From Chloroflexota bacterium (lineage in GTDB: Bacteria; Chloroflexota; Anaerolineae; UBA4142): 34,638 bases of DNA. This document shows, one piece after another, positions 15,457 through 23,260 of this stretch (position 1 is the stretch's first letter; the number at the start of each line of letters is the position of its first letter). Made by a program: the position numbers and the translations under genes. The stretch covers positions 1-34,638 of the forward strand of contig JACRMI010000052.1 in the NCBI GenBank assembly GCA_016215025.1, given 5' to 3'. Under the pieces are notes generated by a model. That model was not told the DNA's origin, ran no database searches, and saw only the letters and a program-made list of their open reading frames with translations.

Positions 15457-17193
15457 TTAAGCATTTTTCAACCCAACCAATTCCCAGATTTCAGTGATGG
15501 CAACGCGTCCTTTGACTTGGACGGGTAGTAAACGCTTCGCCACAATCTCATTGCGAATGCATTGATGCGATTGGCGGCTCAACAAAATCTGTCCGCCTTC
15601 AGCATTCTCCTGCAAGCGTTTTGCCAGATTGACCGCATCGCCGATTGCCGTGAAATTCATTTGCTGTTCGGTTCCGACGTTGCCGACGACGGCATCGCCT
15701 GTGTGGATGCCGATGCCATAGTTCAAGCGCAATTGCTTGGGCAATCGATTGTGCAACTCGGCGAGGGCAGAACGCATGGCGAGAGCTGTCCGCGCCGCGC
15801 GCAGCACATGATCTTCTTGGAGCAGCGGCGCGTTGAAAATTGCCATGACCGCATCGCCCATAAATTTATCGAGCGTGCCTTCTTCTTTTAGAATTGCATC
15901 GGCGGCGACGGCAAGATATTCGTTCAAAATATCGACGAGTTCTTCGGGCGGCAGCGGTTCGCTAAAGCGTGTAAAGCCGCGAATGTCGGCAAATAAAATG
16001 GTGATCTCTTGACGCTGTCCACCCAGTTTAAGCAAGCTGGGATTGCTCGTCAAGCGGTCCACCACCGCTGGCGCGACATAGCGCCGCAACATTTCGCGCG
16101 TTGCTTCGAGCTGGCGCATTTCGGTCACATCGTCCACTACGATGGCGATACCTTGTGGATTGCCGCCCGCATCCTTCAGCGATGAGATGTTGAAATTCAG
16201 ATTGACCGTCCCACGCTTGGGCAAATCGGATTCGATTTCGGCGGCAATGCGGCGGCGCCCCGTTTGTTTGACTTGATCGATCAACCCTGGCAGCGAAGTC
16301 GATTGGAGCAGGGTGAGGATTTGGTTGTACGGCTGCCCCAATGATTCGTCGGCGGCGACATCGAAAATAGTTTCAGCCGCGCGATTGAATGCGGTGATGC
16401 GGTCGTCCAGATCTGTCGCGACGACGCCCGATGCGATACTCGCAAAGATATTATCTTGAAACGTTTTAAGTGCGCTGATTTCGTCGACTTTTTGTTGAAC
16501 GCTTTCAAACAGTTGAGCGTTTTCAATTGCGATGGCAGCTTGGTCGGCGAACGCGCGCATCGCGTCCAGGTCGGCTTGCTGAAACATGCCCGCCCGCAAT
16601 CGATTATCGACATACACCACGCCAATGACGCGATCGTGCGATTTGAGCGGCGTACACAAAATCGAGCGCAAGCTCAAACTGATAACGCTGTCCTGTTCTG
16701 AAAAGCGTGGATCGAGCGTTGCATCTGTCGTGATGATGGGATCGCCGGTCTCAGCGACGCGCGCGATGATGGATCGGCTGACTTGAAATGTGGGGCTAGT
16801 GATCGTCGAGCGTTCCATGTTACGGGCGACTTGGAACGTGAGGTCGCCATTCAGATCGGAGAGCATGAGGAATCCGCGCTCGGCGTGTGTAACTTGGATG
16901 ATAATGTCCATCGCGCGATTCAACACTTGCTTGAGTTCGAGCGTGGAGTTGACGGCGCGGCTCACTTGGAACAAGCCGACGAGTTGGGCGCGCTCTTTTT
17001 CTTGTTGTTCCAGTCCGTTGTGTAAACGTTCGAGAAATTCGCCGAGCTTGGAAACGCGGATGCGCAACTCGGGGGCGTGAGGAATTTCGAGATGTTCGGA
17101 ATCAAGCCACACCAAGAGGTCGCCCAGTCCACGGCGAAGGTCGGCGATATCGCGGCGCGTGCGTTCGATGGTTGAGAGAGAAGTATCAGGCAT
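15457..17193 (-). CDS. adenylyl cyclase with GAF and PAS domains
   Basis: Predicted 578-residue class III cyclase. After a coiled coil (about 10-55), a GAF domain covers about 65-215 (RAVNSTLELKQVLNRAMD to AFADQAAIAIENAQLF), a PAS-like domain about 240-350 (GVVATDLDDRITAFNRAAE) and the cyclase domain about 385-575. Metal aspartates are in ILFADIRGFTRFSE and FMGDAVMAIFN. The Lys in GTLDKFMGDAV and the Asp in TAIGDAVNLAKRLQ form the pair usual for ATP specificity, so it should make cAMP. It has no membrane segment. Its promoter sits inside the hairpin terminator of the upstream gene. Confidence 0.92.
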   Translation of the reverse strand: MPDTSLSTIERTRRDIADLRRGLGDLLVWLDSEHLEIPHAPELRIRVSKLGEFLERLHNGLEQQEKERAQLVGLFQVSRAVNSTLELKQVLNRAMDIIIQVTHAERGFLMLSDLNGDLTFQVARNMERSTITSPTFQVSRSIIARVAETGDPIITTDATLDPRFSEQDSVISLSLRSILCTPLKSHDRVIGVVYVDNRLRAGMFQQADLDAMRAFADQAAIAIENAQLFESVQQKVDEISALKTFQDNIFASIASGVVATDLDDRITAFNRAAETIFDVAADESLGQPYNQILTLLQSTSLPGLIDQVKQTGRRRIAAEIESDLPKRGTVNLNFNISSLKDAGGNPQGIAIVVDDVTEMRQLEATREMLRRYVAPAVVDRLTSNPSLLKLGGQRQEITILFADIRGFTRFSEPLPPEELVDILNEYLAVAADAILKEEGTLDKFMGDAVMAIFNAPLLQEDHVLRAARTALAMRSALAELHNRLPKQLRLNYGIGIHTGDAVVGNVGTEQQMNFTAIGDAVNLAKRLQENAEGGQILLSRQSHQCIRNEIVAKRLLPVQVKGRVAITEIWELVGLKNA

Positions 17194-17250
17194 GATTTAC
17201 AGGTTGCCTGTTGGAAAAGTCATCGTGAGTATCTCTTGTTTGAGGGAATT

Positions 17251-17289
17251 AAAAAAGCGCATTCACAGGTATTATACCCGAAAATGCGC
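17251..17289 (-). terminator. terminator of the DsbA-like gene, enclosing a promoter
   Basis: On the minus strand GCGCATT (17289-17283) pairs with AATGCGC (17263-17257), and the loop contains a further GGTA/TACC pairing. TTTTTT follows at 17256-17251. It ends transcripts from the gene at 17329-17991, and its loop carries TATAAT of the cyclase promoter. Confidence 0.6.
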
Positions 17290-17299
17290 CTCAAGCCAA
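17271..17299 (-). promoter_or_regulatory. promoter of the adenylyl cyclase gene
   Basis: On the minus strand TTGGCT (17299-17294), 17 bp, TATAAT (17276-17271). Predicted start of transcription near 17264, inside the second arm of the terminator hairpin, so new transcripts would lack the first arm. Confidence 0.6.
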
Positions 17300-17328
17300 T
17301 CATGTGAGAGTGACGAGTGAGTGAACGA

Positions 17329-17991
17329 TTATTTCAACAAGGAATCAAATGTGCGTGAGAACTGTCCATAGTCAAGCGATTGAATTTGCAGCACTCGACT
17401 GTTTATCAAGAAGGTTGGTGTTTGATGAATGCCCAATCGATTGGCTTCTGCAATATCCGCTTGAACAATAGGCAGTGTTTTATCGCTGTCAAGGCATTGA
17501 TTAAAAGTTGTCGCATCGAGTTTTAGGTCGGCGGCATATTGCTTCAAATTGGACTTGGTATAGGTTCCGACATTTTCACCTGTCCAAACTTGGAACAGTC
17601 GATTATGGTATTCCCAGAATTTGCCTTGTTGGTTGGCGCATTCGGCGGCTTGCGCTGCCCAGATCGATTCGCCCGAAGGAAATATGGGCAAGTATTTGTA
17701 GGTGAAAGTGAGCTTGCCAGTTTTGACATAGTTGTTCTCGATTTGACGCTCCGCGCCAAGCGCAAACGCTCTGCATCCTGGTCACTGAAAATCAGAGAAC
17801 TCGGTAAAAGAAATTGTGGATTTAGGGTCGCCTGCGGTTCTGCTGTTTGCCGAGAAACTTGATGTTGTTGGAAGAGCTTTGCTTAACAAATCAGCGCCAA
17901 CGATAACAAGAACCACTACGATGCCACCCATAACAAACACTAGCGGCGACAGACCTTTTTTCTGTTGTGGAATAGTACGACGGGGACTCAT
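17329..17991 (-). CDS. DsbA-like thiol oxidoreductase, predicted selenoprotein (UGA = Sec70)
   Basis: A 220-residue reading frame that contains one TGA, at 17784-17782. Residues 13-35 (GLSPLVFVMGGIVVVLVIVG) are a signal-anchor, so the redox domain should be outside the cytoplasm. The sequence around the TGA is FTEFSDFQ-U-PGCRAFALGAERQ, exactly the position of the first Cys of the DsbA-type CxxC (residues 70-73). The rest of the thioredoxin-fold domain follows in the same frame: ECANQQGKFWEYHNRLF, and the cis-Pro loop HQTPTF. Nothing else is broken. AGAGG precedes the ATG. DsbA-like selenoproteins have been predicted before in bacterial surveys; a nonsense mutation of Cys is the alternative. 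Confidence 0.8.
17746..17784 (-). promoter_or_regulatory. SECIS-like hairpin just after the UGA codon
   Basis: After TGA (17784-17782), positions 17769-17746 can fold: GCGC (17763-17760), loop TTG (17759-17757), GCGC (17756-17753), extended by two U-G, one U-A, a one-base bulge, G-C, C-G and a G-U pair. The loop starts 22 nt after the UGA and contains a G. Bacterial SECIS elements have a short stem with a small loop about 16-37 nt after UGA and little sequence conservation, so this fits but is not diagnostic. Confidence 0.45.
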
Positions 17992-18071
17992 AACTTTGCC
18001 TCTGCATCAAGTGTGTCAAGTCGGGATTAAAAAGCACGACAGGCAACTCTCGTCACCCGTCACTTGTCACT

Positions 18072-20144
18072 TTATGGTCCTGCTGTCAGCGATTCGCGTC
18101 CCCATCGTTCTGCATCGGGCATCACATTGTTAATCAGCAATTTTTTGTCGGAACCGTCCGCGCGCATCGAGAAAATGCCCCAGGCTTTGCCGTCTTGATC
18201 GGAACGCCAGAAAATGAAATTGCTATCGCTCGACCAAGCGGGTTGCCCATCATTGCCTTTGCCAGACGTTAGCTGCTTGAGTCCGCTTCCATCGGCATTC
18301 ACAACAAAGACGTTGAGTCCGCCGCCCGCGCCAGCTTGATAAACGATTTTGCTTCCCTGCGGCGACCACTGTGGATTCTGTCCGTTATCGCGTGTGATCG
18401 TTGCGGAGACTTTGTTCACCAAATCGTAGATGTGAATGCCGCACGACGAGGTATTTGTTTCGCAAGCCGAGTATGCAATCTTGGTTCCATCGGGCGACCA
18501 AGAGGGATTAAAACCGCGCGTGATTTCGGTCTTGTTGGTTCCATCGATGTTCACAACGAAAATTGATCCGCCAAATTTTAATTTGCCGTTAAAGTATGCC
18601 AAGCGCTTGCCGTCCCGCGACCATTGAACACAACACGTTTCACCGGTGGTCACGATACGTGGATTGCTGCCATCGAGATTTGAGACGTAGATGCCTTCGT
18701 CCTTCATGCGATAGTACGCCAGCATGTGACCGTCGGGTGAAATGGCGGGCCACAATGCGAGGTCCATGATTTTCTGTGGATTGCTGCCATCGGCGTTTGC
18801 CAGCCAGATCGAATGGTTTTCGGCGATGTCGCCGGAGCCAACGCTGTAGGCAATTCTGCCGCGCGCCGCGACAGGCGCGGCCGGAGTAGTTACCATCGCC
18901 GTGGGACGTGGCGCGGTTGCCGTTGGCGCAATAGCAGTAGGCGGTGCCGGTACCGGCGTTGTTGGCAACGGTGTCGGCGGCACTTGTGTGGTCTGAATTG
19001 TTGGTAACAATGTAAATGTGGGCGCAACAGTTGGTTGCGGTACCGCGATTTTCACGGTTGCGGTTGCTTTGGCTGGAGATGCAACCTTTGCGACGTTCGT
19101 CGTAGCGCCAGGCAAAGTAGATAACGACGCTTGCGAAAAGATCCAGAAACTGCCAACTAGACAGAGAAGAAGCAAGACTCCGACAGTGCCAGCGATTACC
19201 TGCCACGGCAATCGACGAACATGTGTCACATGACTGATTTGCGAAGAAATCCGTTCAGCCGCATTTGCCACCGAGAGTCGATCACTTTGTAAGGGCGGAG
19301 CGAAAAATTCGTCTTCACGCGGACCCTTGACCGCATTCTCCAATGCCTTGGACATTTCGCGCGTACTGCGATAGCGGTCCTTGGGTTCTTTGGCAAGTGC
19401 TTTAAGCAATACCTGCTCGACGACCGGGCGAATTTGTGGATTGATCGATCGCGGCGGTGGCGGTGGATTACCGATGTGCGCGAGAATGGTCGCGTAGGGA
19501 GTGTCACCTTGGAACGGAACCCGCCGAGTGAACATTTCGTACATGACGACGCCGAGCGAGTAAATATCCGTGCTGGCGTTGACATTTTCGCCACGCGCTT
19601 GTTCCGGCGAAATATATTGCGGCGAGCCAACCATCAAATCTTGCGATAGGGTAGATTCGCCGCTTTGTGTAATTCGCGCCAAGCCAAAATCGGTGAGATA
19701 GACGTGCCCTTCGGCGTTGATCAAGATATTCGATGGTTTGACGTCGCGGTGCAGCACACCATGATCGTGTGCGAACGATAACGCATTCGCAACCGGTCGA
19801 ATGATGTTGAGAATTTGTTGCGAGGATAATTTCTCTTCGCGTAAAACGTCTTTGAGCGTTCTGCCTTCGACAAATTGCAGGACGAGGTACGGCAGTCCAT
19901 CGGCTTGACCGAAATCGTAGACCGAGACAATATTGGGATGATTCAGTTTAGCGATGATGGCAGCTTCGCGTTTGAGGCGCGCGACGAAGGATTGATACTC
20001 TTTGAGCGCAGGGTGGATGACTTTGAGTGCGACGTATCGGTCGAGTGTGGGTTGATACGCCTTGAAGATGGTCGCCATGCCGCCTTGCGCAATGTATTCG
20101 GTTATTTTGTAGGGTCCAACGCTTTCGCCGACAGCAAATCCCAT
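18072..20144 (-). CDS. PknB-type Ser/Thr kinase with C-terminal beta-propeller
   Basis: A 690-residue membrane kinase. Residues about 12-275 are a Hanks-type kinase domain: GGMATIFKAY glycine loop, VALKVIHP lysine, HRDVKPSNILI catalytic loop, DFGLA and GSPQYISPEQ activation segment. One membrane helix follows (about 320-342, VIAGTVGVLLLLCLVGSFWIF), then a Thr/Pro/Ala-rich linker with repeated PTATAP words, and an extracytoplasmic TolB/PD40-like propeller from about 440 with repeated SPDG and WSPDGTKIAY units. The start was set at ATG 20144 (MGFAVGESV) because GGGAG lies nine bases upstream. The propeller is probably the sensor domain. The substrates are unknown. Confidence 0.93.
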   Translation of the reverse strand: MGFAVGESVGPYKITEYIAQGGMATIFKAYQPTLDRYVALKVIHPALKEYQSFVARLKREAAIIAKLNHPNIVSVYDFGQADGLPYLVLQFVEGRTLKDVLREEKLSSQQILNIIRPVANALSFAHDHGVLHRDVKPSNILINAEGHVYLTDFGLARITQSGESTLSQDLMVGSPQYISPEQARGENVNASTDIYSLGVVMYEMFTRRVPFQGDTPYATILAHIGNPPPPPRSINPQIRPVVEQVLLKALAKEPKDRYRSTREMSKALENAVKGPREDEFFAPPLQSDRLSVANAAERISSQISHVTHVRRLPWQVIAGTVGVLLLLCLVGSFWIFSQASLSTLPGATTNVAKVASPAKATATVKIAVPQPTVAPTFTLLPTIQTTQVPPTPLPTTPVPAPPTAIAPTATAPRPTAMVTTPAAPVAARGRIAYSVGSGDIAENHSIWLANADGSNPQKIMDLALWPAISPDGHMLAYYRMKDEGIYVSNLDGSNPRIVTTGETCCVQWSRDGKRLAYFNGKLKFGGSIFVVNIDGTNKTEITRGFNPSWSPDGTKIAYSACETNTSSCGIHIYDLVNKVSATITRDNGQNPQWSPQGSKIVYQAGAGGGLNVFVVNADGSGLKQLTSGKGNDGQPAWSSDSNFIFWRSDQDGKAWGIFSMRADGSDKKLLINNVMPDAERWGRESLTAGP

Positions 20145-20170
20145 TATATTTTCTCCCAAAAACTGCCGCA

Positions 20171-20198
20171 ATTATAATACAAGTTGAATAAATGACAA
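20171..20198 (-). promoter_or_regulatory. promoter of the kinase gene
   Basis: On the minus strand TTGTCA (20198-20193), 16 bp, TATAAT (20176-20171). It gives a leader of about 20 nt before ATG 20144, including GGGAG. Confidence 0.62.
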
Positions 20199-20294
20199 AT
20201 TCCAAATGACAAATGGCGATTAGGCAACTAGGAAATTAGGAAGGAACGAGTCGAAAAAATGCGCGAGGGCAAATTCGTTGTTGATCTGCGAAAC

Positions 20295-20332
20295 AAAAAA
20301 CCGGCAGGCATCGGACGACGATGTCTACCGGT
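20295..20332 (-). terminator. intrinsic terminator, distal of two hairpins
   Basis: On the minus strand 20332-20319 (accggtagacatcg) pairs with 20313-20300 (cgatgcctgccggt) with two G-U pairs and a 5-nt loop, followed by TTTTTTGTTT. It lies 49 bp past the stop of the CNB gene. Confidence 0.8.
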
Positions 20333-20343
20333 GATGAGTCTTA

Positions 20344-20376
20344 AAACACCTGGTTTATCTGAGAAACCAGGTGTTT
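20344..20376 (-). terminator. hairpin terminator after the CNB gene
   Basis: Perfect 13-bp arms 20344-20356 and 20364-20376 (aaacacctggttt/aaaccaggtgttt) with a 7-nt loop, beginning 5 bp past the CNB gene stop. On the minus strand the stem is followed by TAAG, so the T-run is weak (TTTT lies within the arm). The arm core acctggttt is shared with the hairpin at 26965-27002. Confidence 0.65.
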
Positions 20377-20380
20377 CTTA

Positions 20381-23260
20381 CTACGGATTCGTGGTTAACT
20401 GAAATTGGATTTTGTAATTGACGTGACGTTTCATTGGCATGATCATTCCAACAACCTGGTCGCTGGGATATTTGTCGTCGATCTTGACGCCATAACCATC
20501 GCCGAACATAAACAGACCATAGTTACAGTCGCAAATATCGCTGGCGCTTTTCTGTTCTTGCGCCGGTTGGTCACCACTGCCATTGCCCCACCATTTGATG
20601 TTGGCTTCAGCGCGCTTGCCGCCTTCGTCAAATATTTTGACGTAGATGGTGTGATCGTTATTCGCTTCGGCGATGTCTTCAAACTTCAAGCTAGTCACGC
20701 GCCAGAATTTTTGACCACGAGCAACGCCAGGCGCTTCGATGACGCGAACGCCTTCCAGGTGTGGCAAGACCTGGGGACCATTTCCCAATCGTGGGTCTAG
20801 GAAGCGAGGTGGCAACGCTGGAATAACTGCGGTTGGCGGCACCGCCGCGGCAGCCGCTTGAACAGGCGCTGGCGTGCGAGTCGCCGGAGCTAACGTCGGT
20901 TTAGGTTTCGGCGTGAAGGTGGGCTGTGGTGTGCGTGTCGGTATTGGCGTGTTAGTAGGAACCGCATTCGCGATTTTGTTACGACTATTACCAAATGGAT
21001 TGCCGACGATATCAGCCTGGGTTGTTGTCACGGCTTCTGTGCCGTTGGACAATTGCAATCCGCCGACAGCAGAACTAACCGCTGTAAATGTTGTAAAGGG
21101 ACCGGCGATAACGACAAACCAGGTGGCGAGCAAACCCAGGGTGAGGGCGCGCAATTTTGCGCCTAACGATAGTCCATGCGCCCAGTCGCCAAATTCGGCG
21201 AAGAAGCTCTTGCCGCGTGGTGCGGCTTGCTTGTGAGGACGATGAAATTCCGGCGCATGCAGATGTGGCATCTGAGGAGTCTGGAAATGCGGCGCTTGAA
21301 GGTGCGGCATTTTCGGCGCTTGAAGATGCGGCGCTTGCAAATGCGTTTTAGCCGCTGGCTTGGGTGCAACAGTTGGAGCCGCAACGGAATTCATCGAGGT
21401 TTGTTTTTTGGGCGGTGCTGGTGGTTGCTGCTTTGGCGTTACGATTGGCGCAGTTTGCTGCGGCTTGGGCGCAACCGGAGTCGCTGACTTGATTGGGCGC
21501 GCACCCGACGGCGGTCGTTGAATGCGCGGAGGTTGTTGCGTGTTGCTGGGTGGTCGCGCGGCAGGAGGACGCGGCGGAACTCCGCCGGTTGGGCGCGGAC
21601 GCGGTTGCATGGGCGGGCGATTTTGCGCGTGGGAAAGACGCTCTGCCATCAAGCGGGTTACGGTGAGCGAAAGTGCCGGATAGCTTTGCATCATCGCCAT
21701 GAAATCGGTCTTGCTAATCGTCCACAATTCCGTATCGGTTAAGGTCTGCGCGGTTGCATAGTACGGCTGATTCTGGACGATCTCTTGATCGCCAAACGAG
21801 TCGCCCGCTTCGAGAATATCGAGCATGATTGGCTCGCCCGCTGGTCCGGTGGTCATGCGCTTGATCTGACCTTTTTCGATCAGGTAAAGCGTTTGCGAGG
21901 GCTGACCTGCAAAGCAAACGATTTCGCCGGGGCGGAAGCGCAAGCCATGCACACGCTTGGATATTTCGTCCAACTCGCTGCCTGCCAAATCGGCAAACAG
22001 TTTAATGCGGCGCATGTGACGGATGACGAAATCGCTTTCGCGTTTGGTCAAGCGTTCGCTCAAAGCGCGGGAAAGCGACAAGCTGATTTCGGGATATTGC
22101 ACCAGCATCTCGTCGAAATCGGTCTTGTAAAGGACCCACAGGGTCGAATCGGATGCAGCCCGAGCACATTCGCCGCGAGTGCGTCCGGTGAGCAATGCCA
22201 TTTCGCCGAATGCGCCGCCGGGCTGAATTCGTTCCAGCAAGCGCGCCATGTTGCTTGAGCTGTCCATCAGACGGACTTGCCCGGAATCAACGATGTACAT
22301 GGCGTCGCCGGGAGTGCCTTCGGCGTAGATCACTTCGTTCGCCGGGAAATGGCGCATCACGAGGCGCGAGGTCAAGACCGAAAGCGCATCCGTCGGCACG
22401 TCGTTAAATAGGTGAAGCTGGCGCATTCGTTCGACGGCGTCGGTTTGGTCGTTCGCGCTAATCGATTCTGCAAGCGCGCGGCTCAACGCCAATTTGACCG
22501 ATGGATGTTCGCGAAGCAATTCCAAGTACGCGGCGCGAGGAAGAACCCATAATGTCACATCGGTGACGGCGCGGGCGGTGGCGGTATATGGCTTGCTGGT
22601 GAGTAAGGCCGTGTGACCGAAGATTGCGCCTTCTTGCAAATCCTCAAACGATTCGCCTTCCTTGGTCTTGGTAATTAGCCGAACGCGACCTTCTTCGACA
22701 AAGAACGCGGCTTCGCCGGCCTGACCTGCATCGATAATGACTTGGCTGCGGTCGCAATGGCGAAAATCAAGTCGTTGGGCAATGGCACGGAGATCGCTCT
22801 CCGACAACGCGCTCAGCAAATCGATGTGGCGCAAGCGGTGTTGTACCAAATAGTTTTCGAGGAATGCGATGCGCATTCCCATGTTTGCGCTGAATTTCAA
22901 ACCGATGCTGGGGCATTCGTTAATGAGGTCTTCCAAATCTGTGCGAGAGAGGGTCAGAAGTTGGGTATCCGAAGTACCGGCGGCGCGGGCCGTCATGGAA
23001 TAGGTGCGCCGTTGCAGCATATCAAGTTCGCCGATCAAGCTGCCTGCGCTGAGATTTGCGAGCGTTTGGTGAATGGCATTGCTTTCAAGTTTGACCCAGC
23101 CGGATGAGATGATGAACATCGTATTGGCGGCTTGGCCCTCTGAAATGATCAATTCATTGGGTGCAGCTTGGCGTCGCTTGAGACGAGTGGTGACCAGTTG
23201 GCGCTCTTCCTCGGTGAGTCGTTGGAAAAGCGGGATGGTGTCTATGGGTTGTGGAATCAA
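20381..23260 (-). CDS. four cyclic-nucleotide-binding-like domains plus membrane anchor and C-terminal domain
   Basis: A 959-residue protein. Four tandem CAP_ED/cNMP-type domains occupy about 1-130, 135-260, 275-405 and 415-545; each has the PLF/HLF entry helix and a phosphate-cassette-like strand (GELDM, FGHTALL, FGEMALL, FGDQEIV). Only the third is close to the consensus cassette FGE-x-AL. A Pro-rich linker follows with repeats of HLQAPx/HFQTPQM (about 650-695), then a membrane helix (about 708-730), a Thr/Pro tract and a 130-residue outer domain. The start codon is TTG at 23260 with GGAGG nine bases before it. It probably senses cAMP or a related signal. Confidence 0.9.
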   Translation of the reverse strand: MIPQPIDTIPLFQRLTEEERQLVTTRLKRRQAAPNELIISEGQAANTMFIISSGWVKLESNAIHQTLANLSAGSLIGELDMLQRRTYSMTARAAGTSDTQLLTLSRTDLEDLINECPSIGLKFSANMGMRIAFLENYLVQHRLRHIDLLSALSESDLRAIAQRLDFRHCDRSQVIIDAGQAGEAAFFVEEGRVRLITKTKEGESFEDLQEGAIFGHTALLTSKPYTATARAVTDVTLWVLPRAAYLELLREHPSVKLALSRALAESISANDQTDAVERMRQLHLFNDVPTDALSVLTSRLVMRHFPANEVIYAEGTPGDAMYIVDSGQVRLMDSSSNMARLLERIQPGGAFGEMALLTGRTRGECARAASDSTLWVLYKTDFDEMLVQYPEISLSLSRALSERLTKRESDFVIRHMRRIKLFADLAGSELDEISKRVHGLRFRPGEIVCFAGQPSQTLYLIEKGQIKRMTTGPAGEPIMLDILEAGDSFGDQEIVQNQPYYATAQTLTDTELWTISKTDFMAMMQSYPALSLTVTRLMAERLSHAQNRPPMQPRPRPTGGVPPRPPAARPPSNTQQPPRIQRPPSGARPIKSATPVAPKPQQTAPIVTPKQQPPAPPKKQTSMNSVAAPTVAPKPAAKTHLQAPHLQAPKMPHLQAPHFQTPQMPHLHAPEFHRPHKQAAPRGKSFFAEFGDWAHGLSLGAKLRALTLGLLATWFVVIAGPFTTFTAVSSAVGGLQLSNGTEAVTTTQADIVGNPFGNSRNKIANAVPTNTPIPTRTPQPTFTPKPKPTLAPATRTPAPVQAAAAAVPPTAVIPALPPRFLDPRLGNGPQVLPHLEGVRVIEAPGVARGQKFWRVTSLKFEDIAEANNDHTIYVKIFDEGGKRAEANIKWWGNGSGDQPAQEQKSASDICDCNYGLFMFGDGYGVKIDDKYPSDQVVGMIMPMKRHVNYKIQFQLTTNP

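What the first reader, a model, noticed from the sequence alone, without database searches (positions are those of the whole stretch)
17329..17991. Predicted DsbA-like selenoprotein with U-P-G-C active site
The reading frame is intact from ATG 17991 to 17329 apart from one TGA at 17784-17782. Translating through gives FSDFQ-U-PGC, putting the UGA exactly at the resolving-critical first Cys of the DsbA CxxC. On both sides the sequence is that of a normal membrane-anchored DsbA-like protein with the ECANQQGKFWEYH block and the TPTF cis-Pro loop. A random stop would hardly fall on this one codon. The UGA could also be read as a Cys-to-stop change (TGT or TGC to TGA), but nothing else in the gene has decayed.
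Basis: partly seen in the sequence, partly recalled or inferred. Interest (0 to 1): 0.85.

Follow-up and report, generated by a model that had tools for sequence, protein, structure and literature searches.

The report
Selenocysteine DsbA-like enzyme in Chloroflexota
This gene has a UGA stop codon exactly where related disulfide-exchange enzymes have their active cysteine, followed by an RNA hairpin shared by most relatives that have the UGA, in a genome that carries the genes for selenocysteine; the codon is therefore predicted to be read as selenocysteine, making a new member of an already known kind of selenium protein.

Summary
The frame 17991-17329 (-) is open except for one TGA at 17784-17782, on the first Cys of CxxC. 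The genome holds selA, selB, selD (itself with an in-frame TGA) and tRNA-Sec. Two further paralogues in this genome, and 45 distinct homologues in all, have TGA at exactly this codon and nowhere else in the aligned domain. A hairpin 28 nt after the TGA has all six pairs in 37 of 45 TGA genes and 0 of 19 Cys/Asp homologues. It covaries, partly through synonymous codons, as expected of a bacterial SECIS element. The fold is BdbD-like. The protein is probably a membrane-anchored, extracytoplasmic UxxC thiol-disulfide exchange enzyme; its in vivo direction is untested. Two corrections: the UGA replaces the attacking (nucleophilic) Cys, not the resolving one; and the nearest kin are BdbD/Thioredoxin_4 proteins and the Rcas_1661 (seleno)lipoproteins. 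UxxC DsbA/DsbG-like selenoproteins have been in print since 2005, so this is a new member of a known kind. Less usual: three Sec paralogues in one genome, one fused to a J-like domain; a tandem paralogue lacking the active-site pair; and repeated Sec/Cys swaps.

The parts
17329..17991 (-). Predicted selenoprotein gene, 220 aa with Sec70, TAA stop at 17331-17329
   Evidence: Pfam PF13462/PF01323; MSPRR start shared by several relatives
17782..17784 (-). In-frame UGA (codon 70), predicted selenocysteine, at the first Cys position of CxxC
   Evidence: TGA at this codon in 45 of 45 distinct TGA homologues; TGT/TGC (18) or GAC (1) in the 19 others read
17773..17775 (-). Cys73 codon, partner (resolving) Cys of U-P-G-C
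   Evidence: column C73 nearly invariant in alignment A1
17743..17759 (-). Predicted bacterial SECIS hairpin, stem TTGGCG/CGTCAA, loop CGGAG (17753-17749), 28 nt after the UGA
   Evidence: covariation, Cys controls, synonymous shuffles
17887..17949 (-). N-terminal hydrophobic segment (residues about 15-35), likely membrane anchor
   Evidence: read by eye; no topology program run
17638..17640 (-). Cys118, invariant, possible second (structural) disulfide with Cys166
   Evidence: invariant column in 29 sequences; pairing inferred
17494..17496 (-). Cys166, invariant
17416..17418 (-). Pro192 of the TPTF loop (cis-Pro position of the Trx fold)
   Evidence: T191-P192 invariant; cis geometry recalled for the fold
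17999..18003 (-). AGAGG, Shine-Dalgarno-like, 7 nt before ATG
   Evidence: read by eye

Best explanation
The gene at 17991-17329 likely encodes a membrane-anchored, extracytoplasmic BdbD/DsbA-like thiol-disulfide exchange enzyme whose attacking residue is predicted to be selenocysteine, inserted at the UGA at 17784-17782. Shown by sequence: one UGA, exactly at Cys1 of CxxC; TGA or Cys at this codon in homologues; a hairpin at 17759-17743 that covaries across the TGA homologues; selA, selB, selD and tRNA-Sec in the same genome. Inferred: SelB with Sec-tRNA binds the hairpin and recodes the UGA, so that without selenium translation would stop after 69 residues, leaving the membrane anchor and the first strands. 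Inferred: outside the membrane the Sec70 selenolate and Cys73 form a selenenylsulfide and exchange it with protein thiols or disulfides. The VKOR homologue (oxidising) or the DsbD/CcdA homologues (reducing) found in the genome would reset it. My preferred direction is fast disulfide formation or shuffling in secreted proteins, reset by VKOR, but this step is the weakest.
For: Machinery: selB 344.9 bits, tRNA-Sec 69.7 bits with anticodon UCA, selA 598 bits, selD 361.6 bits, itself with TGA in CAGUAS. Site: 45 of 45 TGA homologues; three TGA paralogues in this genome. SECIS: 6/6 pairs in 37 of 45 TGA genes against 0 of 19 Cys/Asp genes (Fisher 2.5e-10), and none of 81 Cys rows from named genomes with 5 or more pairs. 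Three pairs show two-sided changes, and sliding the partners by 1-3 columns drops pairing from 99.6% to 24-45% (38 preselected rows). With Asp GAC the facing Arg codon is CGT 14 of 14; with Gly GGC it is CGC 18, CGT 5. All four published bSECIS constraints are met by 40 of 45 TGA genes, against 2 of 19 and 4 of 79 in the Cys sets; synonymous shuffles of the TGA genes give mean 8.3, maximum 12 of 45. Fold: BdbD is the best match by profile (5.6e-36) and by structure (1.2e-12). VKOR. DsbD_TM.
Against: The window's own hairpin reaches only -6.9 kcal/mol (7-bp form; -4.3 for the 6-bp form) when the stem is scored alone, short of the review's -7.5 limit, so it is one of the 5 of 45 that fail. Folding 55 nt including the UGA gives a competing structure no more stable than shuffles (z 0.32; L010 -0.63). 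The folding excess depends on the stretch: for +15 to +48 the Cys set is also lower than its synonymous shuffles (z -0.67, p 0.009; TGA set -0.96). Sec machinery discriminates little, because most of the class has it (selA over cut-off in 246 of 298 genomes, tRNA-Sec in 254 of 298). Of the 30 TGA genomes, three (G098, G292, G047; 70-87% complete) have no good selA, and five (G292, G112, G058, G177, G030) have only weaker tRNA-Sec matches (best E 1e-9 to 2e-7), some perhaps under the cut-off. The genome is a draft with 7.7% contamination, and the Sec genes lie on other contigs. Nothing shows which redox direction is used; the neighbours (kinase-PD40 and GAF-PAS-cyclase genes) do not point to disulfide formation.
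Confidence: 0.9

Rival explanations
1. The gene is a selenoprotein, but works mainly as a reductase, isomerase or peroxide-reducing enzyme fed electrons by a DsbD/CcdA protein, not as an oxidase.
For: Sec in place of Cys1 generally makes the pair more reducing (established knowledge). Three DsbD_TM proteins over cut-off are in the genome. Many kin are named 'protein-disulfide isomerase' by one source.
Against: The closest solved relatives are BdbD and actinobacterial DsbA/TsdA proteins, recalled as oxidases. A VKOR homologue is present.
Confidence: 0.35
2. Nonsense mutation or sequencing error: a Cys codon became TGA and the gene is dead or mis-assembled.
For: Cys homologues use TGT/TGC at this codon, one base away from TGA.
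Against: TGA at the same codon in 45 distinct homologues from 30 genomes, with no other stop in the aligned domain. The hairpin is complete only in TGA genes and covaries.
Confidence: 0.01
3. UGA is a sense codon (Trp or Gly) in this lineage, or is read through non-specifically, with no selenium involved.
For: Seven of the 31 homologous proteins read, all from one source (JGI), have Trp at this position.
Against: TGA ends 2 of the 8 Pfam-supported window genes and occurs inside none of the 8. It also ends the tandem paralogue on C73. The alternating residue is Cys, not Trp, in DNA-checked homologues. All seven Trp forms come from one source, which suggests code-4 gene calling (inferred; their DNA was not read).
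Confidence: 0.02
4. The UGA acts mainly as a selenium-dependent switch: without selenium a short membrane peptide is made, and the regulation is the point rather than the chemistry.
For: Termination at the UGA would leave residues 1-69 with the hydrophobic anchor.
Against: The residue sits in the catalytic motif, and Cys alternates with it repeatedly along the tree, which fits chemistry. No regulatory feature was found, though none was searched for systematically.
Confidence: 0.03

Closest known systems
NCBIfam NF041057, Rcas_1661 family thioredoxin-like (seleno)lipoprotein (listed as 'DsbG-like protein', UxxC, in the 2026 review PMC13188914)
   Same: Aligns over the whole Trx domain (residues 52-217); family name and review table allow Sec at UxxC; named after a Roseiflexus castenholzii locus tag (recalled), i.e. 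also Chloroflexota.
   Different: 124.6 bits against a cut-off of 190; no lipobox by eye, instead an MSPRR start with a hydrophobic anchor.
DsbA-like selenoproteins of the Sargasso Sea and 2006 surveys (PMC1088965, PMC1794560)
   Same: UxxC in a DsbA-like protein, with stem-loops after the UGA in the Sargasso set (passages).
   Different: The Sargasso set is assigned to COG2761, which was not tested here; the present protein scores higher on Thioredoxin_4 (PF13462) than on DSBA (PF01323).
BdbD of Bacillus subtilis (PDB 3eu3/3eu4)
   Same: Best profile and fold match; extracytoplasmic disulfide protein of a Gram-positive (recalled).
   Different: Cys-x-x-Cys (recalled), 24% identity; works with BdbC (recalled), whereas a VKOR homologue was found here (BdbC/DsbB was not searched for).
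Cys-containing full-length homologues (P0006, P0010, P0012, P0014, P0016)
   Same: Same MSPRR start (all but the shorter P0016), anchor and similar length, 51-55% identity.
   Different: Cys instead of Sec at the site.

Membership tests
Bacterial selenoproteins | In-frame UGA aligned with a redox Cys of homologues | tested here: met
Bacterial selenoproteins | Sec machinery (selA, selB, selC, selD) in the genome | tested here: met
Bacterial selenoproteins | bSECIS: loop 3-9 nt, stem 4-16 bp, G in the first two loop positions, 16-37 nt from the UGA (constraints from PMC13188914) | tested here: met
   window: 7-bp stem, GGA loop, 29 nt; or 6-bp stem, CGGAG loop, 28 nt
Bacterial selenoproteins | bSECIS minimum free energy at or below -7.5 kcal/mol | tested here: inconclusive
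   window stem alone -6.9; 42-nt stretch containing it -11.7; 40 of 45 homologues pass with the stem alone
Bacterial selenoproteins | Sec detected in the protein | not testable with these tools
   needs 75Se labelling or mass spectrometry
Pfam PF13462 Thioredoxin_4 | Score over the gathering cut-off | tested here: met
   112.5 bits vs 23.2
Pfam PF01323 DSBA | Score over the gathering cut-off | tested here: met
   42.9 bits vs 25.6
NF041057 Rcas_1661 family | Score over the curated cut-off (190) | tested here: not met
   124.6 bits
NF041057 Rcas_1661 family | Lipoprotein signal | tested here: not met
   by eye only: no Cys before residue 70 in the translation
DsbA-like selenoproteins, COG2761 | Membership of COG2761 | not tested
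   no COG library was searched
BdbD/DsbA oxidases | BdbD-like fold | tested here: met
   (TM 0.70 by query length, 0.82 by target length)
BdbD/DsbA oxidases | Oxidises thiols of exported proteins | not testable with these tools
   needs a biochemical assay

The most novel reading that the evidence does not exclude
This lineage runs its extracytoplasmic disulfide chemistry on selenium: several UxxC BdbD-like enzymes per cell, one of them with a J-like domain on the other side of the membrane. A tandem-encoded lipoprotein paralogue that has lost the active-site pair (CPYS in relatives, DPYS in this genome) acts as a dedicated substrate-holding partner. Sec and Cys are exchanged repeatedly between homologues as selenium supply changes.
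Probability: 0.15. Interest if true: 0.7.

Novelty: new member of a known kind. Interest (0 to 1): 0.4.

Why it matters
The gene is an overlooked selenoprotein: the protein set searched holds only a 137-aa tail of it (P0003), and some relatives are probably read with Trp. The family gives an unusually clean natural experiment: one fold, 15 Sec/Cys label changes on the tree with at least 8 forced by well-supported branches (bootstrap rough), and a hairpin complete in most Sec forms and in none of the Cys forms read. It could make the question of why bacteria keep or drop Sec in disulfide-exchange enzymes directly testable.

Tried and rejected
Pseudogene, sequencing error and codon reassignment were considered and rejected (see rivals). 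Association of TGA with Sec machinery across the class was considered as evidence and dropped: the machinery is nearly universal there, so it discriminates little. Plain thermodynamic folding of the region is weak; the evidence is comparative. The SECIS covariance model R1 found only the three TGA sites of this genome, all in its training set, so it adds nothing independent; it did not find the selD site. Genome context gave no functional link. Papers: one search listed 9, among them the selenoprotein surveys. Searches (1 paper; 3; 21 holding at least 4 of 5 terms, 15 listed) showed none that, from its listing, treats this system. Searches (selenocysteine, DsbA, VKOR; Rcas_1661; Chloroflexota, selenoproteins, UGA, thioredoxin) returned 0. 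Three papers were seen as found passages only (PMC1088965; PMC13188914; PMC1794560); the rest as search listings.

Rows dropped or sampled before counts; counts refer to the 150 listed matches; more exist unlisted; one fragment not covering the site (L037|-|2184); duplicate loci L011, L076, L077 and identical DNA dropped, leaving 45 TGA and 19 others (18 Cys, 1 Asp). All 44 listed TGA matches were read, but only 16 of the 106 listed non-TGA matches; the other 3 of the 19 are L013 and two neighbouring genes in L055 and L073. So the 19 are a sample of the better-scoring ones. Searches used 38 of the 45 rows, chosen for 5 or more pairs, so they lean towards the structure; searches used all 45. 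One search aligned all 45 but was not used for a count. In one search, 79 of the 81 named Cys rows were used. The five TGA rows come from four contigs already in the survey and are not independent. One search read 31 of the 120 listed proteins. One search used 124 rows and counted the Trp rows apart from Sec, which inflates its 17 changes; one search left out the seven Trp rows and the Asp row (116 rows) and gives 15 changes, at least 8 forced, which is the figure used. Both took at most 15 of 81 named Cys rows and left out proteins without the site.

Full report
What was checked. The minus-strand frame 17991-17329 gives 220 residues and a terminal TAA, with a single in-frame TGA at 17784-17782 (codon 70) in FSDFQ-U-PGC. 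Pfam Thioredoxin_4 (112.5 bits, cut-off 23.2) and DSBA (42.9 bits, cut-off 25.6) match across the TGA.

Does the organism have selenocysteine? Yes, by gene content. The window is contig C2 of a 7.74-Mb draft genome in 194 contigs (96.4% complete, 7.7% contaminated). It holds selB (344.9 bits, over cut-off), selA (598 bits), selD (361.6 bits) and a tRNA-Sec with anticodon UCA (Rfam 69.7 bits, gathering 47). selD itself has an in-frame TGA in CAGUAS, which fits the UxxK motif that the review table gives for SelD. The stretches fetched around these genes have similar GC to the window (0.52-0.55). However, the machinery is common in the class: selA is over cut-off in 246 of 298 genomes and tRNA-Sec in 254 of 298, so this alone proves little.

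The site. In this genome two more homologues have the same TGA: L010 on C73 (DFQUPYC) and L012 on C133 (FQUPYC). Among 298 genomes of the class, 270 have a match. Of the 150 listed matches, 44 (in 30 genomes, by my count of the listing) contain exactly one stop, always TGA; 106 contain none; none contains TAA, TAG or two stops. All 44 were read (loci). With a third tandem copy in G155 they give 45 distinct sequences, and the TGA falls on codon 70 in 45 of 45. The 19 other homologues read have TGT/TGC there (18) or GAC (1).

The RNA element. Counting from the T of TGA as 0, positions 25-30 pair with 36-41 around a five-base loop, CGGNN in 34 and CGTNN in 6 of the 45 (window 17759-17743). All six pairs form in 37 of 45 TGA genes and in 0 of 19 Cys/Asp genes (Fisher 2.5e-10). 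Random re-pairing of the two halves among the 45 gives 16.1 complete stems on average and 23 at most in 5000 shuffles. In the 37, three pairs alternate: C-G 26/T-A 11, T-A 20/C-G 17, and G-C 18/A-T 14/G-T 5. Gly GGC faces Arg CGC (18) or CGT (5), whereas Asp GAC always faces CGT (14 of 14), a synonymous change that the protein does not need (Fisher 2.4e-6). On the 38 rows with at least five pairs, which were preselected, the covariation score is 0.472 against 0.245 for shuffles, and sliding the partners by 1 to 3 columns drops pairing from 99.6% to 24-45%. Folding z-scores against synonymous shuffles are -1.52, -0.96 and -0.91 for the 45 TGA genes and -0.28, -0.67 and -0.26 for the 19 others over +18 to +45, +15 to +48 and +9 to +54; the middle value of the Cys set is itself significant (p 0.009). 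By the four bSECIS constraints given in PMC13188914 (passage seen), 40 of 45 TGA genes pass, against 2 of 19 and 4 of 79 in the Cys sets; synonymous shuffles give 8.3 on average and 12 at most in 50 rounds. Three of the eight TGA genes outside the common register (L069, L071, L074) have a stem shifted by a few bases. The window's own stem meets three of the four constraints and misses the energy limit narrowly (-6.9 vs -7.5). Relatedness among sequences weakens these p-values; the independent combinations of changed pairs are what convinces.

Named genomes. A scan of the genome-contig collection (84,980 species) kept the best 80 loci. Of 86 rows read from them, 81 have Cys and none of these forms five or more of the pairs; 5 have TGA, all on Chloroflexota contigs already in the survey (names). 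The scan's second pattern requires Cys, so it under-counts TGA forms. It shows that relatives in the window's family are Anaerolineae / Chloroflexi: L078 and L079 have the contig lengths and positions of G257 and G292 loci.

What the protein is. The best solved relatives are BdbD of Bacillus subtilis by profile (3eu3, 5.6e-36) and by fold (AlphaFold mean pLDDT 86.8; Foldseek 1.2e-12, TM 0.70/0.82). The N-terminus is a short basic stretch and a hydrophobic segment, by eye a membrane anchor. Cys118 and Cys166 are invariant in 29 sequences and may form a second disulfide (inferred). A VKOR homologue and three DsbD_TM proteins over cut-off are possible redox partners; they lie on other contigs. 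The neighbours are a Ser/Thr kinase with PD40 repeats upstream and a GAF-PAS-guanylate cyclase downstream.

Relation to known families. UxxC 'DsbA-like' and 'DsbG-like' selenoproteins were reported in 2005 (PMC1088965), tabulated in 2006 (PMC1794560) and are in the 2026 review (PMC13188914); passages only were seen. NCBIfam already has NF041057, the Rcas_1661 thioredoxin-like (seleno)lipoprotein; the window protein scores 124.6 bits against a cut-off of 190 and lacks a lipobox by eye, so it is kin, not a member by that model. The right class is a new member of a known kind.

What is less ordinary. (a) The three TGA paralogues in this genome lie in two well-separated parts of the tree: window and L010 in one starred clade, L012 in another. 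(b) L012 is fused to a J-like domain (PF00226, 62.6 bits). In the family of 14 genomes only this one has the fusion; matches to the close homologues begin at query residues 74-94, behind the J-like domain. By eye the HPD motif (recalled as the DnaK-stimulating motif) reads QSK, so it is probably not a working co-chaperone. (c) Directly downstream of L010 is a paralogue with D-P-Y-S in place of the active site; in G217, G137, G039 and G274 the second tandem copy has C-P-Y-S, while in G257, G237, G155 and G118 it has TGA. The five copies without TGA fall in one clade (31 rows, 100/98), of which 29 end in Ser at the second active-site position and two (P0060, P0076) in Cys. (d) Sec and Cys have been swapped repeatedly: with Trp and Asp rows left out, the label changes 15 times on the tree, at least 8 forced by well-supported branches (116 rows; its bootstrap had not settled).

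Annotation. The protein set searched holds only a 137-aa tail of this gene (P0003), and seven JGI homologues show Trp at the site, probably TGA read by code 4 (inferred).

Verdict. Sec at residue 70 is very likely (about 0.95). An extracytoplasmic thiol-disulfide exchange role is likely; its direction in vivo is open.

Noticed in passing
L012:1114-2070 (+), contig C133: TGA-containing BdbD-like domain fused behind a J-like domain and a hydrophobic segment; HPD reads QSK by eye. Only 1 of 14 family genomes has the fusion.
   Followed up: partly
L010:2257-2952 (+), contig C73: Tandem lipoprotein-like paralogue next to a UPYC gene with the active site D-P-Y-S; relatives G217, G137, G039, G274 have C-P-Y-S there.
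   Followed up: partly
L023:1396-2457 (-), contig C108: selD of this genome is itself a predicted selenoprotein (CAGUAS).
   Followed up: partly
P0004, P0007, P0011, P0013, P0015, P0019, P0027: JGI homologues carry Trp at the Sec position, probably TGA read under code 4; DNA not read.
   Followed up: no
P0003 (window 17329-17742): The protein set's entry for this gene begins after the UGA (MENNYVK..., at a codon that encodes Ile in frame) and is 137 aa long.
   Followed up: no
L037 (G155 contig C229): Three tandem TGA copies; the third is split between two frames in the assembly.
   Followed up: no
window 15457-23260 (-): Signalling genes around the gene: GAF-PAS-guanylate cyclase, Ser/Thr kinase with PD40 repeats, and a 959-aa protein with four cyclic-nucleotide-binding stretches.
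   Followed up: no
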